Shown: piece by piece, positions 2,203-41,291 of the stretch | How the letters are laid out: every line of letters begins with the position of its first letter | How positions within the stretch are numbered: the first letter of the stretch is position 1 | NCBI GenBank assembly: GCA_038363925.1 | Contig: JAQQWL010000004.1 | Coordinates: 2,976,001 to 3,040,000 of the forward strand | Length of the DNA: 64,000 nucleotides | DNA from: Apiospora phragmitis | Lineage: Eukaryota; Ascomycota; Sordariomycetes; Amphisphaeriales; Apiosporaceae | Reading direction: 5' to 3' | The notes under the pieces: generated by a model | The model's database searches: none | Told to the model about the DNA's origin: nothing | The model's input: the letters and a program-made list of their open reading frames with translations, nothing else | Made by a program: the position numbers and the translations under genes

Positions 2203-5200
2203 ATGTTGTCGTCGCCCGATGCCGCCGCTCTCGGCGAACCCAGCGGCGGCCCTGCCGTCCCGCCCGCCGCCGCCACCACGCCGCGCACGAGCGCCGTCCA
2301 CAACCCGACGCACACCCCCGAGCTCGACCTGCCGAAGCTGCAGTCGCTCCCCGCCGAGCAGCAGGACCTGTTCCTGCTGACCTTCGTCTCGACCCTGCGC
2401 GCCCACGTGCTGGCGCTGCCGCCCGACGACTGCACCGCCCAGCAGTTCTATCTCAAGAAGGAGGTCTTCCAGATCCTCAACCTCACCACCCCGCCGCCGA
2501 GCCGCGTCGTCCGCAACAACGTGGGGCCCATCCTCGCCCACATCTTCGAGCACGGCGACCGCAAGCTCCTCTTCGAGACCGTCAACGACCTCGTCAACAT
2601 GATCACTAATTCCAAGGCCAAGACCGACGCCGAGCACCGCACGCGCCACGCCGCCGTCACCTGCCTGGGCGACGTCTACGCCGCCGCCGGCGACAGCGTC
2701 ATCGGCCTCCACCCCCTGGCCTGCTCGGCGCTCCTGAAGCTGCTCAAGAACACGTCCGGCAACGCCGGCCTGCGGGCCGCCGTCCTCACCTCCTCTCCAA
2801 GATCGTCGGCATGGTGGGGCCGAGCATGGACGAGACGATCGCGCGCGACATCTGGAAGCAGGGCCGCAACGTGGCCGCCGCCGACAAGGGCCACCTTGCC
2901 GTCGTGGCCGCCTGCCGCTGCCTGCGGGCCCTGTCCAAGAATACCCCCTACTTCGAGACCTCGGGCGACTTCGACAAGGTGACGGCCGCCCTGTTCAAGG
3001 CCATGGACTCGAACTCCACCAGCGTGCGCCACGCGGCCGCCGAGTGCCTCGCCGAGGCCATGGTCAAGAGCCATTCCGAGCTGGGCGCGGCCGAGAACGC
3101 GGCCGCCAAATCCAAGAAGGGCAAGGCGAAACAGAACAAGCGGGCTTCCATGGCCCCGGGCGCGGGCCTCGCCGAGGAGGATGACTTGCCCACCTCGCGG
3201 CCGGGCAGTCCCGCCCCCGGCGGCAAGAAGTCCCAAGACCTCGCCATGTCCCTCGTCGACATGCTCAAGATCCTCTCGGGGCATTACGTGCGCATGTCCA
3301 CCACGAACAAGACCAGGGCAGCCCTGGCCGTCTGCTACGGGCGGGTCCTCCGTAAGCTGGGCGAGAAGATTGTCGAAGCCAATTACTTGAGGATAGTAGA
3401 GAACCTCACGCTCGACCTACTGGGCAACCCCAGCATCGCAAACAACCGGTACAGGCTGCTGATCTCGAGGCGCATCGTCGACACCATCCTCCAAGACGTC
3501 GTCGGGCGCAAGATCCTGGGTGAGTCCGGCCAGATGAGCGCTGCCAAGGCCGTCATCAACGACATCTTCAAGAACTACCCGCAAGCGCTCAAGGAGCGGC
3601 CAGAACCCTCGAAGCAGATGCTCATCGCCGCTCTCGGCGCGGTGGCCTCCCTAGTCGAATCGCTGGGCTCGGCCGCCAACAACTTCGCCGAGCCCTGCCG
3701 TGACGGTTTGCTGCAAGTCCTGCAGCACCCGAGCTACAGCGTCCAGGTCTACGCCTCGCGGTGCCTCAAGAGCTTCGTCCTGGCTTGCCCGCAGCAGCTT
3801 CTCCCCTGCCTGTCCGTGTGCATGAACAGTCTCAGCCGGGAGCTGTCGCTGCTCACTAGTGGACGGAACTCCCCGAGGCGGTGTGTGGGGTTCGCGCATG
3901 GGCTGGCGGCGACGCTCAGCGCCAGTCCGTCGCGGCCGCTCTACGGATCGGTCGATATCAACAGTCGGGTTCTGTCCATGGCGACGAACTTGCTCAAGTC
4001 GAGCGGCAAGTCGGAACTGCGCGTCTCGAGCACACAGATCCAGGTGGCTTGGATCCTCATAGGGGGTCTCATGTCGCTCGGTCCCAACTTCGTCAAGATC
4101 CATCTCTCCCAGCTTCTTCTCCTGTGGAAGAATGCCCTCCCGAAGCCCCTGGCCAAGGACAACACGTCCAGCCGCAGTCTGCTGGAGGCTTCCCTTCCTC
4201 ACCCACGTGAGGGAATGTGCGTTGGGGTCAATCCTGGCGTTCCTCCAGTTCAATAGCCGCCTGCTCACGGTCGATGTCTCGAAGCGCATTGCCACCATGC
4301 TGCAAAGTACCACGGCGTTCCTGAGAACGTTACCACCCAAGAAGACCAGCGACGACATCTCCCAGAGATTGACACCGGCTCTGCAGCTCCACGATCTGGA
4401 ATTGATGGTCCAGCGCCGTGTTCTCCAGTGCTACATCAAGCTGGTAAACCAGAGTCCGGCAGGTGGGAGCGAGGCACTGCTGCAGTCCAACCTGCTCACC
4501 TTGGCCATTTCTCTCTTTGCCGATCCCGAGAACTACGGCACCAACTCTCTCGGTGCTTCCATCGCCAACGTCGCGGGCGCATTGGAAGCCGTGTGGGAAG
4601 TGGGCGACAATTCCGGCTTCGGCATCACGGGTCTTATCAACGGGTTCAAGCTGAAGAAGCTTCCGGGCCAGCAACAGGAATCCTCTGACGAGGAGCTCAC
4701 CAAGGCCGAGGCGGATGCGTATAGCAGCATTGACGATCTTCTCAAGTCGCCCATCTGCCCCTCGTTGGAGCATGACGCTGCCGTGCTGTACGTGGGATCG
4801 TCGGACCAAGAGAGTCTCCCCGATCCACCCGCCACCGAGGTGGTCAACATGGCCATCCAACTCTTTGCTTTCGTTTTCCCCTTGACGCCCGCCAAGGTCC
4901 AGGAGAGTATTCTCGAGCAGGTGGTTACCTTCCTTTCCGCCGGTGCGCTCCAACGAGATCCGGGTCGCAAGGCCGCCATCAACGTCAATGTCGCGGCAGC
5001 CCTGCTGTCTACACTTAGGGTTGCCGTCAAGGAGACTTCCTCGGCGCCTGGCGACGTTACGAACCTCGCGGTTGAGAGGCTTCTTCAAGAAATAGTCAGG
5101 AGCTTCGTCATCGACCCCGATCAGTATGTTCGCAGCATGGGATACGCCGCCCTTGCTAGGCTGTGCAATACCTGTGGGAACGCGTTTACCAACCACGAGA

Positions 5201-8200
5201 TCAAACACCTGGTGGACACGATTGTCGGCAACCGGGAGCCTAGTGCCCGAGCCGGGAGTGCCATGGCGCTCGGCAGCATCCAGGCCAAGGTGGGTGGCAT
5301 GGCCGCTGGATATCATCTCAAGACCATCTTGGGCATCCTCATGTCTCTCTGCAACGATCCCCACCCGACGGTGCACTTCTGGGCTTTGGAGGCGCTGTCC
5401 CTTGCTGCCGACGCTGCAGGTCTAGGCTTCTCTTCGTTCGTGCCCAGCACATTGGGAATGCTCGCGCAACTTTACCTCTCCGATACGCATCACTTGGAGT
5501 TATCATCTGCAATCACGATGAATCTGGAGATGGAGCTCTCAACGCCTGCGGCCATAGCACGCTGTGTCGACTCCTTGGTCAATGTTCTGGGCCCTGATCT
5601 GCAGGAGTCGACCAAGTCGCGGGAGCTGATCCTCACTTTGGTAGGCCAACTCCAAGAAGAGGAAGATATCCTTGTTCAGCGCGCCAGCTTGGGCTGCTCG
5701 GAACACTTGTCGCTCTACGCGCCGGGGAACATGATGTTTGCAGACTACGTGAAGCTATTACAGAAGTATTTCAACGGCGATGTTGGTATTCTCCGGGATG
5801 CTGCTGTGGACGGTCTGTACAACCTGATGAAGCGGAATTCCCGCGATGTTTTTGAGGCGGCAGAACCGGGGCTCGAGGGCCAGCTCTGGCTCGTCCTGGA
5901 CAGCGTGCCGAGCCACGATGGCATTCGCAACATCATCCGCAACTGGATGCGCCAGACCTCGCTGGAAGACACGGCCGCGTGGCTCATACGCCTCCAGGAT
6001 GTCCTCCGGATGACGAGGCCCAAGGCCGTCGACAACGCGGAGAACAGCTCCAAGAAGCAGAGCGCGCCCGTCGATCTCCGCGACGAAGAGGTCGCCGGTT
6101 TCGCGGCTGCGGGTGGCGTCAGCGACGACAAGGAAGCCGCCGTGGGCTCCGAGGTTGAGCCGCTCCGGTGGCAGGTCCGGACTTTTGCCATCGGCTGCTT
6201 GAGCGACATATTCGCCCTGATCAACAAAGACATTGCGACCAACGGCGAGTCGCCGGCCCAGGCGGCCCTGCAGTCCAAGATTGCCGAGGTGGTGCGGATG
6301 GCCTTCTCGGCCTCGACGTCCAGCGTGCTGGAGCTGCGGATCTGGGGCCTGAAGATCATCGGTGCCGTACTCCGCATGTTCGGCAAGTCGCCCGATCCCG
6401 ATTTCGAGGAGGCCATGCTGTTGGAACAATACCAGGCGCAGATTAGCTCCGCCCTGACGCCGGCGTTTGCGGCCGACTCGTCGCCTGAGCTCGCGTCGGA
6501 AGCCGTCAATGTTTGTGCGGCCTTCATTGCCACCGGTATCGTGACGGATGTCGACCGGATGGGACGAATCCTCAAGACGCTCGTCTCGGCGCTGGAGAAC
6601 TTCTCGAGCGAAGCCGAGCACGCGGGCATCGGCGATCTCCAGGGCCTCAGTTCCAACGCTCAGGTCATGGTCAAGATGTCGGTTTTCTCGGCCTGGGCCG
6701 ACCTGCAAGTCGCCAGCACCGAGCAGAAGTACCTGCACGACGTGCTCAAGCCGCACATCGGCAAACTCACCCCGCTGTGGCTGTCGTCCTTGCGAGAGTT
6801 TGCTCGTCTACGATTCGAGCCCGACATCTCGATGACGCTAGGACCCCCCTCCCTGTCGGGCAGCTTGGATACCATCTACGCCGCCCTGAACCGCGAGACG
6901 CTGCTGCGGTTCTACCAAGAGTCGTGGCTCAAGCTCGTCGACGCCATCGCCAGCCTGATCGAGCAGGACAGCGAGTTCGTGTTTGATGCCCTCGACGGCA
7001 AAGAGACCGAGGGCGAGGGCATGACGACGAACGGGAAATCCAAGGGGCCCGAGATCAACTACCGCGACGAGCCAGTGGCCTTCTTCTTTGTCCTCTTCGG
7101 CGTCGCGTTCGAGGCGTTGGCCACCCGGCCGGGCCAGGCAGATTCGTTGGCCACGCAGGAGCAGACGCTGGAGATCTTGCAGGCTCTTAAGAAGATCGTG
7201 CATCCCAGCGTGTCCGGCCACGCCATCTACCGCGACGCCATCTTCTCCGAGACGATGGACCTGCTGGACCGGCGCGTGCTTACCGAGGGGCTCGACGTGC
7301 AGGCCGTCATCGTGGAGATTGCGCGGGCGCTGTGCGTGGCGCACCCGTCGGCGCGCAAGAAGGAGCAGCCCGACAACGGCGGCGATCTAACGGAAGACAT
7401 CGAGCAGCTGTTCGAGCTGACGCGCATCATCGTGCTGGTGCTGTCGGGCATGCTGCCCAACCTGGTCGAGACGGGAGGGCAGCAGGCGGGGGTGCTCCGG
7501 CACCAGCTGACGGAGGAGGCCGTGCTGCTGATCCGGACGGGCCTCAGCGCCATCGTGGACGCGGCCGAGGTGTTTCCGGACATCATCAAGACGGACCTGC
7601 ACGCGTGCATCATCCACATCTTCGCGACTATCCTGGCGACGCCGACGTGCCAGGAGACGATTGTGCCGCAGGCGCTGCCGATGCTGAAGCGGTTCGTGGC
7701 GAGCATGTGCAGCGCGTCGTCGCGGGCGGAGGAGATGAGCAACAGCAGCAATACTGATGGTGCCATGGCCGCGCCGGATTACAAGTCCCTCACCCACATT
7801 CAGCTGCAGGGCTGCCTGCGCCGCTTCCTGTCCATCTACCTGCACGCGCAGAAGCGGGAGCTGCCGACGTCGCTGCAGTGCGTCAAGAACTGCTTGCTGG
7901 CCGTCACCATCCTCTTCACGGGCGGGCGGAACCAGCTGGCGGCCAACGACGGGCTCGTGTCGCGCTTCTTGGATGAGGTGATTGATTGTTTGATGGATCG
8001 TATGGTAAGTTGTTTTTTACTTTACTTTCCTTTCCTTCATTTTGCTTTGCTTTGCCTCCCTCGGTTCAAGATGTTTTATTCTCTATCCTAATCATGTATA
8101 TTTACTAACATGAACAAACTTAGACGGCCAAGATCGCCGCCAACTGCGTCCGGTCGCTACTGCTGCAGGCGTCGCCAACGCCGGCCGACCAGTCCATCGC

Positions 8201-8603
8201 GCGGTACCTGCTGCCGCGCCTGATCTCGTTCGTGACCAACACGGACCCGGAGGACCCGGAGGGCGCGCGCAAGCTGGTGGCGCTGACGCTGGCGCAGTAC
8301 GTATCACACGTGGGTCCGGACCACGCGCCGATCGTCATGGCCGTGGTGGCGCCGACGCTGCTGTCGCGGGCGGCGAGCGAGGGCCAGGGGGTGTACGCCG
8401 AGACGAGCGCGCGGCTGCTCGAGATGGCGGCGTCGGGGCCCGAGTACCAGGCGGCGTTCCGCGGGGTCGTGGCGGCCATGAGCGAGGGGCAGAAGGCGTT
8501 CATGGAGGAGGTTATCCGGTCCGGGCGCTCGCAGCGGGATGAGGCGGGGGACAAGGGGGGAGGGTGGATGGGGCTGGTGGGGGACAGCCGACGATTGCGC
8601 TGA
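2203..8603 (+). CDS. LAA1: LAA1/HEATR5-type large HEAT-repeat protein, AP-1 accessory factor (two compensating frame breaks)
   Basis: About 2093 aa. Laa1 (animal HEATR5) is a long HEAT-repeat solenoid that binds the AP-1 clathrin adaptor and acts in trans-Golgi/endosome traffic. The N-terminal block with LTFVSTLRAHVLALPP and RVVRNNVGPILAHIFEHGD is characteristic, and amphipathic HEAT helices continue to the end. The first in-frame ATG is at 2203. One intron, 8005-8123 (GTAAGT donor, TACTAAC branch point, TTAG acceptor), joins codon ATG to ACG GCC AAG. The coding frame breaks twice: near 2790 one base is missing (reading resumes LLSKIVGMVGPSMD), and near 4190 one base is extra in CTTCCC (reading resumes FLTHVRECALGSILAF). 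The block between is clearly coding in its own frame, so these look like sequence errors, not decay. A 135-bp GA tract follows the stop. Confidence 0.92.
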
Positions 8604-40514: not shown

Positions 40515-41134
40515 GGTTCTTGCTGGACTCTTCAATCAGGTTCTGATCGATATAGAGGGACACTAGATCCCAAAGAACCATCCGGTCCGTCGGGAGGCAG
40601 CATCATCATGCCACGGCTCTCTGCGGACACCATTGAAACCGTTCATATCGCCATGGCATAATCGGGCAACGATGAGCACCGGTGCACTCGACCACACGCC
40701 ACAGAAAGCAAAGAGTTCAGTCCACTCTTTCCTTTGATGAGCAGCGAACGGTTATAGTAGGGTACGACTTGACGATAAGCTAGAATTGCCAGGCGCTCTA
40801 CGTTGAGCACGATCCCATTTTAGACGTCGTTCTTTCTTTTTCTTTGCAATTTACTAACCCTGATATAAGTTATATAGCGTAACATTAGTATACAGCGGGT
40901 TTGGTCAAATAGGTCGGCGGCACAATTGTATACTAGAGTCTTGCAGGCATGGACCCTAGTGGGATAGTAAGATACCACGTAGATATGTGACACTATTCAT
41001 TGGCGCTCCTGAGAAGCCCAAACACCTGTCTTCTTTTTCAGTACTTAACTGAGTGATTAAAGGTTCAGCGGAACAAAACACACGATGGGCGGACATGTAA
41101 CAAGATATAAGAAATGCAAAAAGAATGAGTTGAA
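40515..41134. other. Gene-free region, pseudokinase 3' flank
   Basis: About 620 bp. Holds the pseudokinase 3' UTR and, at its right end, the termination region of the minus-strand tRNA gene. No ORF is supported. Confidence 0.5.
41118..41122 (-). terminator. Pol III terminator of the tRNA-Phe gene
   Basis: A run of five T on the minus strand, 12 nt after the tRNA 3' end. T5 or longer is the standard RNA polymerase III stop in fungi. Its presence argues that the split tRNA gene is still a transcription unit. Confidence 0.7.
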
Positions 41135-41154
41135 TGCGGCTTATGTGGATCGAA

Positions 41155-41219
41155 CTAGAGTCTTGTTAGTGACAACTGACTCGGATGTTTGTTCCGGTTG
41201 TAAGCAATGGATTGCTTAC
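41155..41219 (-). other. Putative spliceosomal-type intron inside the tRNA-Phe T-arm (65 nt)
   Basis: The insert begins GTAAGC, has CTAAC whose branch A is 11 nt from the 3' end, and ends CTCTAG. These are the same signals as the mRNA introns in this window, and 65 nt is within their size range (54-232 nt). Its first 20 nt form a perfect 9-bp hairpin (GTAAGCAAT, loop CC, ATTGCTTAC) that would hide the 5' splice site. No target-site duplication longer than one G is visible. Alternatives are a small mobile element or introner insertion that killed the gene. Confidence 0.7.
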
Positions 41220-41235
41220 CACATGACCTCCAGAT

Positions 41236-41254
41236 ATTCTGATGAAGTTTGGAT
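41236..41254 (-). other. Canonical tRNA-Phe anticodon-loop intron (19 nt)
   Basis: Sits between nucleotides 37 and 38, the universal eukaryotic position cut by tRNA endonuclease. It contains ACTTCA, complementary to the anticodon region, as in yeast tRNA-Phe introns of 18-19 nt. Confidence 0.9.
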
Positions 41255-41291
41255 CTTCAGTCTGGCGCTCTCCCAACTGAGCTAAATCCGC

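What the first reader, a model, noticed from the sequence alone, without database searches (positions are those of the whole stretch)
41135..41291. tRNA-Phe gene interrupted in its T-arm by a 65-nt insert with spliceosomal intron signals
Seen: a complete tRNA-Phe(GAA) on the minus strand whose 5' part (41220-41291) and 3' part (41135-41154) are separated by 65 nt placed exactly between positions 53 and 54. The insert starts GTAAGC, has CTAAC 11 nt before its end and ends TAG. Removing it and the normal 19-nt intron leaves 73 nt with a perfect T-stem. Known: eukaryotic nuclear tRNA introns normally sit only at 37/38; T-arm introns are known in Archaea and some red algae and are cut by tRNA endonuclease, not the spliceosome. 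I know of no fungal tRNA with a GT-AG intron. Inference: either an introner-type intron inserted and is spliced from a Pol III transcript, or it is a recent inactivating insertion.
Basis: partly seen in the sequence, partly recalled or inferred. Interest (0 to 1): 0.9.

Follow-up and report, generated by a model that had tools for sequence, protein, structure and literature searches.

The report
tRNA genes carrying spliceosome-type second introns
A reed fungus appears to interrupt several of its transfer-RNA genes, at one and the same spot, with small introns that look like those of protein-coding genes, which would mean that the messenger-RNA splicing machine also helps to make transfer RNA.

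Summary
Confirmed and enlarged. The tRNA-Phe(GAA) gene at 41135-41291(-) has a 19-nt intron at 37/38 plus a 65-nt GTAAGC...CTAAC...TAG insert exactly at 53/54. The genome is Apiospora phragmitis. Of seven tRNA-Phe genes found, three carry homologous inserts at 53/54. Spliced, the window copy differs from the insert-free tRNA at 7 of 73 sites; six of these form three compensatory pairs, one spanning the insert. A pattern search then found tRNA-Pro(AGG) and tRNA-Pro(TGG) genes interrupted at the same site by unrelated 54- and 57-nt GTAAGT...CTAAC...CAG introns. One of two U6 genes, a polymerase III gene class, has a 61-nt intron of this type. No bulge-helix-bulge was found (0 of 5). Best reading: spliceosomal introns in polymerase III tRNA transcripts, tolerated at 53/54 because an AG-ending intron keeps the B box. 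Splicing is inferred; no RNA data. Against: intron-free paralogues exist for Phe and Pro(AGG), the Phe 5' splice site lies in a conserved hairpin, and interrupted Phe and Pro(AGG) genes lack their families' shared 5' flank. The census is a lower bound.

The parts
41255..41291 (-). tRNA-Phe(GAA) exon, positions 1-37 (A box included)
41236..41254 (-). canonical 19-nt intron at 37/38; its ACTTC can pair with the anticodon GAAG
   Evidence: pairing by eye
41220..41235 (-). exon, positions 38-53 (5' strand of the T stem)
41155..41219 (-). 65-nt insert at 53/54: GTAAGC ... CTAAC ... TAG
41200..41219 (-). hairpin 1 of the insert (8-bp stem), which contains the 5' splice-site motif GTAAGC
   Evidence: 16 of 16 pairs of the two hairpins kept in 3 of 3 genes, no covariation
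41158..41182 (-). hairpin 2 of the insert, which contains the branch-point motif CTAAC (41165-41169)
41155..41157 (-). 3' splice-site motif TAG
41135..41154 (-). exon, positions 54-73 (T loop, 3' strand of T stem and acceptor stem)
41147..41156 (-). B-box sequence AGTTCGATCC, its AG supplied by the intron end
   Evidence: reading as B box from general knowledge
41118..41122 (-). T5 run 13 nt after the gene, possible polymerase III terminator

Best explanation
The insert is a spliceosomal (GT-AG) intron in a polymerase III-transcribed tRNA gene, and the window gene is one of at least five such genes in this genome. Proposed order: polymerase III is directed by the A and B boxes (an AG-ending intron at 53/54 leaves the B box as AGTTCRANYC); the nuclear spliceosome removes the T-arm intron, so that the T arm and the tRNA core can fold; ends are trimmed and the RNA exported; the tRNA endonuclease removes the ordinary 37/38 intron. 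Shown: gene anatomy, homology of the three Phe inserts, exon conservation with compensatory changes, two further GT-AG introns at the same site in tRNA-Pro genes, a U6 gene with an intron of this type. Inferred: transcription, action of the spliceosome, order of steps, function of the spliced tRNAs.
For: Three of seven tRNA-Phe genes carry homologous inserts at 53/54. Window copy: 7 of 73 exon sites changed, six forming three compensatory pairs, 49-65 spanning the insert; 4.5e-6 of random 7-change trials reach three. Pattern for a GT-AG intron running into a B box: 2 hits in 52.67 Mb, 0 in the reversed control; both are tRNA genes cut exactly at 53/54, seen by ARAGORN only when spliced. Pro(AGG): the 70 exon bases compared are identical in 6 of 6 genes although canonical introns and flanks differ. 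All five introns plus the U6 intron: GTAAGC/T, CTAAC with its A 10-14 nt from the end, TAG/CAG, 54-65 nt, no TTTT. U6 gene with a 61-nt intron in the same genome. One protein-coding intron near window 8011-8123 has the same signals. No BHB (0 of 5).
Against: No RNA evidence. Intron-free paralogues: 4 Phe, 5 Pro(AGG). Interrupted Phe genes lack the 5' flank shared by the four others; the interrupted Pro(AGG) gene lacks the GGGTTTC before the other five. The Phe 5' splice site sits in an 8-bp stem, which could hinder U1. Pro(TGG) has U5.U68 and U6.U67 mismatches. An intron-less U6 gene also exists and scores higher unspliced (64.1 against 57.4 bits). Only one genome seen. PMC4090602 (passages) takes T-arm insertions in one of many synonymous eukaryotic genes for pseudogenes.
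Confidence: 0.7

Rival explanations
1. The interrupted genes are inactive: tRNA pseudogenes with an insertion, kept because intron-free copies do the work.
For: Intron-free paralogues for Phe and Pro(AGG); missing 5'-flank motifs; general expectation for such insertions in PMC4090602 (passages); mismatched acceptor stem of Pro(TGG).
Against: C13 0 of 73 and C10 1 of 73 exon changes, C4 three compensatory pairs; Pro(AGG) exons unchanged over 70 bases while introns and flanks differ; splice signals and hairpins kept while linkers diverged; T runs kept; no second Pro(TGG) gene found in three searches of limited reach.
Confidence: 0.13
2. The inserts are ectopic tRNA introns cut by the tRNA splicing endonuclease through RNA structure, as in Archaea, Cyanidioschyzon and nucleomorphs.
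For: The Phe inserts are structured and their hairpins conserved; some eukaryotic endonucleases do cut ectopic introns (PMC4090602 and PMC3978253, passages).
Against: No strict or relaxed bulge-helix-bulge at the junctions in 5 of 5 genes (no positive control run); Pro introns are little structured (-5.1 and -5.3 kcal/mol); GT, CTAAC and AG in 5 of 5 would be coincidence (for the Pro genes these motifs were part of the search pattern).
Confidence: 0.07
3. The Phe insert is kept or removed conditionally: two hairpins mask 5' splice site and branch point, making a switch or a stable non-tRNA product.
For: Hairpins contain the splice signals and are the most conserved part: stem columns outside signals 22 invariant and 1 variable, loop and linker 7 and 21; 16 of 16 pairs kept in 3 of 3 genes.
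Against: No covariation inside the hairpins (one G-C to G-U); folding energy stands out in C4 and C10 but weakly in C13 (1, 7 and 42 of 1000 shuffles as low); Pro introns lack such hairpins.
Confidence: 0.1

Closest known systems
mRNA-type intron in U6 snRNA genes of fungi (S. pombe; Tani and Ohshima as cited in PMC8917221, passages)
   Same: GT-AG intron of about 50-60 nt with CTAAC inside a polymerase III transcript; in S. pombe reported as removed by the spliceosome; a U6 gene of this genome has one too
   Different: Here the host RNA is a tRNA with an internal promoter and usually a second, endonuclease-type intron; the position is fixed by the B box
Ectopic tRNA introns of Archaea, Cyanidioschyzon merolae and algal nucleomorphs (PMC4090602, PMC3978253, passages)
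   Same: Second intron outside 37/38; T-arm introns are known there
   Different: Those are ascribed to the tRNA endonuclease, often through a bulge-helix-bulge; none found here, and GT-AG/CTAAC signals are present
Canonical nuclear tRNA intron at 37/38
   Same: All seven Phe genes and all six Pro(AGG) genes also have one
   Different: Other position, other signals
Introners / introner-like elements
   Same: GT-AG introns gained in new places; hairpins in fungal ones are recalled, not read (the paper could not be fetched)
   Different: No further copy found for the Phe insert; introns of different tRNA families unrelated by eye

Membership tests
Spliceosomal (U2-type) intron | GT...AG ends at the exact exon boundary | tested here: met
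   5 of 5 tRNA introns; boundary set by insert-free genes for Phe and Pro(AGG), by the cloverleaf for Pro(TGG)
Spliceosomal (U2-type) intron | 5' splice-site and branch-point consensus, suitable spacing and length | tested here: met
   GTAAGC/T, CTAAC with A 10-14 nt from the end, 54-65 nt in 5 of 5; these motifs were search criteria for the two Pro genes
[quoted passage not shown]
   needs RNA
Endonuclease-type tRNA intron | position 37/38 | tested here: not met
   53/54
Endonuclease-type tRNA intron | bulge-helix-bulge at ectopic junctions | tested here: not met
   0 of 5, strict or relaxed, two registers (own script, no positive control)
Introner family | many similar copies in other genes | tested here: inconclusive
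   no copy outside tRNA-Phe in one word-based search, which also missed the C4 copy; Pro introns not searched
Functional tRNA gene | cloverleaf, anticodon and B box intact after removal of the insert, T run behind | tested here: met
   exceptions: A5.G68 in all Phe genes, U.U twice in Pro(TGG)
tRNA pseudogene | exon decay without regard to pairing | tested here: not met
   0, 1 and 7 of 73 changes in the three Phe genes, six of the seven compensatory; Pro(AGG) 0 of 70; Pro(TGG) has no paralogue to compare

The most novel reading that the evidence does not exclude
In Apiospora the spliceosome is a tRNA-processing machine: introns were gained more than once in unrelated tRNA genes at 53/54, the site where an AG-ending intron leaves the B box intact, so that part of the Phe and Pro tRNA is made only by spliceosomal and, for Phe and Pro(AGG), also endonuclease splicing; in the Phe lineage two conserved hairpins over the 5' splice site and the branch point may make this supply switchable.
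Probability: 0.5. Interest if true: 0.93.

Novelty: new variant of a known kind. Interest (0 to 1): 0.86.

Why it matters
tRNA splicing and spliceosomal splicing are treated as separate pathways. The tRNAscan-SE 2.0 paper (passages) calls eukaryotic tRNA genes limited to one intron and describes the search for noncanonical introns for its archaeal model, so such genes would be missed or scored low. If these introns are spliced, tRNA supply depends on the spliceosome, the polymerase III exception U6 becomes a class, and intron gain can be studied where the promoter itself decides which site is tolerated.

Tried and rejected
Recent inactivating insertion or assembly error: not preferred (three homologous copies on three contigs; similarity among their loci ends within about 27 nt of the genes). 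Chance resemblance to splice signals: rejected (2 hits against 0 in the control). Endonuclease-type ectopic intron: no motif.

A further candidate, C4:2638372-2638501(-) (L053), has a 58-nt GTAAGT...CTAAT...TAG insert after T33 of the anticodon loop, but its body resembles tRNA-Arg(TCT) (75% to C9:2230747, L129), and the spliced forms that I tried by hand give anticodons that do not fit Arg. A lead, not counted.

The first pattern had one C too many and so could not match the Phe genes; the corrected, wider pattern did not complete, so five genes is a lower bound and only GTAAG...CTAAC introns before a C61-C62 B box were surveyed. The tRNA family search scored 63 of 1715 candidates and missed normal genes, so there is no full census; 20 of its longer hits and 12 shorter ones were fetched and typed with ARAGORN together with its first 30 loci. 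The Pro(TGG) pattern had 6 hits against 4 in its control, and 1 of the 6 is a tRNA, the known gene. Two viral-contig scans gave 0; 11 hits in prokaryote contigs were not followed up. The covariance model of the insert was never used in a search.

Paper searches answered. Their listings show no spliceosomal intron in a tRNA gene.

Full report
WHAT IS THERE. The window comes from Apiospora phragmitis: a protein recorded for that species matches a window gene at 100% and lies on a contig of 3,139,291 bases, the length of our contig C4. At 41135-41291 on the minus strand lies a tRNA-Phe(GAA) gene with two interruptions, 19 nt at 37/38 and 65 nt at 53/54. ARAGORN recognises the tRNA only after removal of the 65 nt.

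THE PHE FAMILY. A search of the own genome (52.67 Mb, 19 contigs) with the gene gives seven matches, all tRNA-Phe; the same seven places are the zero-mismatch hits among 13 hits of a motif search with 2 hits in its control. Three have an insert at 53/54 (C4, the window gene, 65 nt; C10, 58; C13, 58) and four have none (C3, C5, C9, C11). All seven keep a canonical intron. The three inserts are homologous: GTAAGCAAYCYATTGYTTAC, a linker, GAGTCAGTT..CTAACRAGACTCTAG. Stem columns outside the splice signals are 22 invariant and 1 variable; loop and linker columns are 7 and 21 (Fisher p 1.8e-7; three rows only, columns not independent). Similarity among the three loci ends within about 27 nt of the genes, so they are not recent segmental copies. 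The hairpins show no covariation, one G-C to G-U apart, so I cannot say whether sequence or structure is conserved; folding energies are as low in 1, 7 and 42 of 1000 shuffles (C4, C10, C13).

EVIDENCE OF FUNCTION. Spliced, C13 equals the insert-free tRNA (0 of 73), C10 differs at position 57, and C4 at seven sites: pairs 6-67, 7-66 and 49-65 are each changed on both sides and still pair, plus 57. Sliding the structure by 1 to 3 columns gives no such pair; the shuffle control of the same call is weak (26 of 500), since only three distinct rows exist. Seven random changes give three or more such pairs in 4.5e-6 of trials. Pair 49-65 spans the insert, so the T stem forms with the insert out or looped out.

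A WIDER PHENOMENON. A pattern for a GT-AG intron running straight into a B box hit twice, its reversed control never. Both hits are tRNA genes cut exactly at 53/54: tRNA-Pro(AGG) on C11 (gene from 5946715, intron from 5946783) with 54 nt, GTAAGT...CTAAC...CAG, and tRNA-Pro(TGG) on C6 (2113761-2113826, minus) with 57 nt; ARAGORN finds each only in spliced form. Six Pro(AGG) genes were found, five without this intron; 70 exon bases are identical in 6 of 6, while canonical introns and flanks differ. For Pro(TGG) the 74-nt spliced query finds only this gene and two patterns find no other TGG tRNA; genes of another sequence type could be missed. Its acceptor stem has U5.U68 and U6.U67 mismatches. 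Beyond splice signals the Phe, Pro(AGG) and Pro(TGG) introns show no evident similarity (by eye), so I infer at least two and probably three gains at one position.

A PRECEDENT IN THE SAME GENOME. Two of ten U6 matches pass the Rfam cut-off. One, C8:277890-278049, carries a 61-nt intron GTAAGT...TACTAAC...CACAG inside ACAGAGAAGAT|TAGCATGG; the other, C9:3094216-3094328, has none and scores higher unspliced (64.1 against 57.4 bits). Spliced, the first agrees with the consensus at 83 of 105 positions, the second at 75. Which of them supplies the cell is unknown, so dependence on splicing of a polymerase III RNA is not proven by U6. PMC8917221 (passages) says that S. [quoted passage not shown]

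WHY 53/54. All five introns end in AG and run into TTCRA, so the B box keeps its G (from the sequences and general knowledge of B boxes). The same reasoning says that an insert within the A or B box would break the promoter. None of the introns contains TTTT, and a run of at least four T starts 8-13 nt after the seven Phe genes and about 17 and 22 nt after Pro(TGG) and the interrupted Pro(AGG) gene.

HOW IT MOST LIKELY WORKS. Polymerase III transcript; spliceosomal removal of the T-arm intron in the nucleus; folding, end trimming, export; removal of the 37/38 intron, where there is one, by the tRNA endonuclease. Transcription and both splicing steps are inferred.

WHAT SPEAKS AGAINST. No RNA data. 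Interrupted Phe and Pro(AGG) genes have intron-free relatives. The three interrupted Phe genes lack the 5' flank shared by the four others, and the interrupted Pro(AGG) gene lacks the GGGTTTC before the other five. The Phe 5' splice site is inside an 8-bp stem. PMC4090602 (passages) takes T-arm insertions in one of many synonymous genes for pseudogenes. No other species could be examined. The corrected genome pattern did not complete, so the census is incomplete.

KNOWN OR NEW. Nearest known: U6 introns (same machine, other RNA) and ectopic tRNA introns of Archaea, a red alga and nucleomorphs (same RNA, other machine). No bulge-helix-bulge was found (0 of 5, no positive control). The tRNAscan-SE 2.0 paper (passages) calls eukaryotic tRNA genes limited to one intron. 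Eight answered paper searches listed nothing like it; the library holds only openly licensed papers, and four later searches failed.

Noticed in passing
L053 = G000:C4:2638372-2638501(-): tRNA with an Arg(TCT)-like body and a 58-nt GTAAGT...CTAAT...TAG insert after T33 of the anticodon loop; spliced so, the anticodon reads TTC, which does not fit the body.
   Followed up: partly
L073 (G000:C9:3094216-3094328) and L074 (G000:C8:277890-278049): Two U6 genes: an intron-less, diverged one and one with a 61-nt spliceosome-type intron beside the ACAGAGA box.
   Followed up: partly
all seven tRNA-Phe genes (L031-L037): A5.G68 mismatch in the acceptor stem, shared by interrupted and uninterrupted genes.
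   Followed up: no
5' flanks of L034-L037 and of L085-L089: Insert-free Phe genes share roughly 50 or more bases of 5' flank, and the five intron-free Pro(AGG) genes share GGGTTTC just before the gene; the interrupted genes do not.
   Followed up: partly
window 2203-8600 (+): LAA1-like HEAT-repeat gene with two apparent frameshifts near 2790 and 4200-4258 and one GTAAGT...CTAAC...TAG intron near 8011-8123; the frameshifts may be assembly errors.
   Followed up: partly
G000:C19: Contig with tRNA genes without introns from 4180 to 220746, probably a large mitochondrial genome.
   Followed up: no
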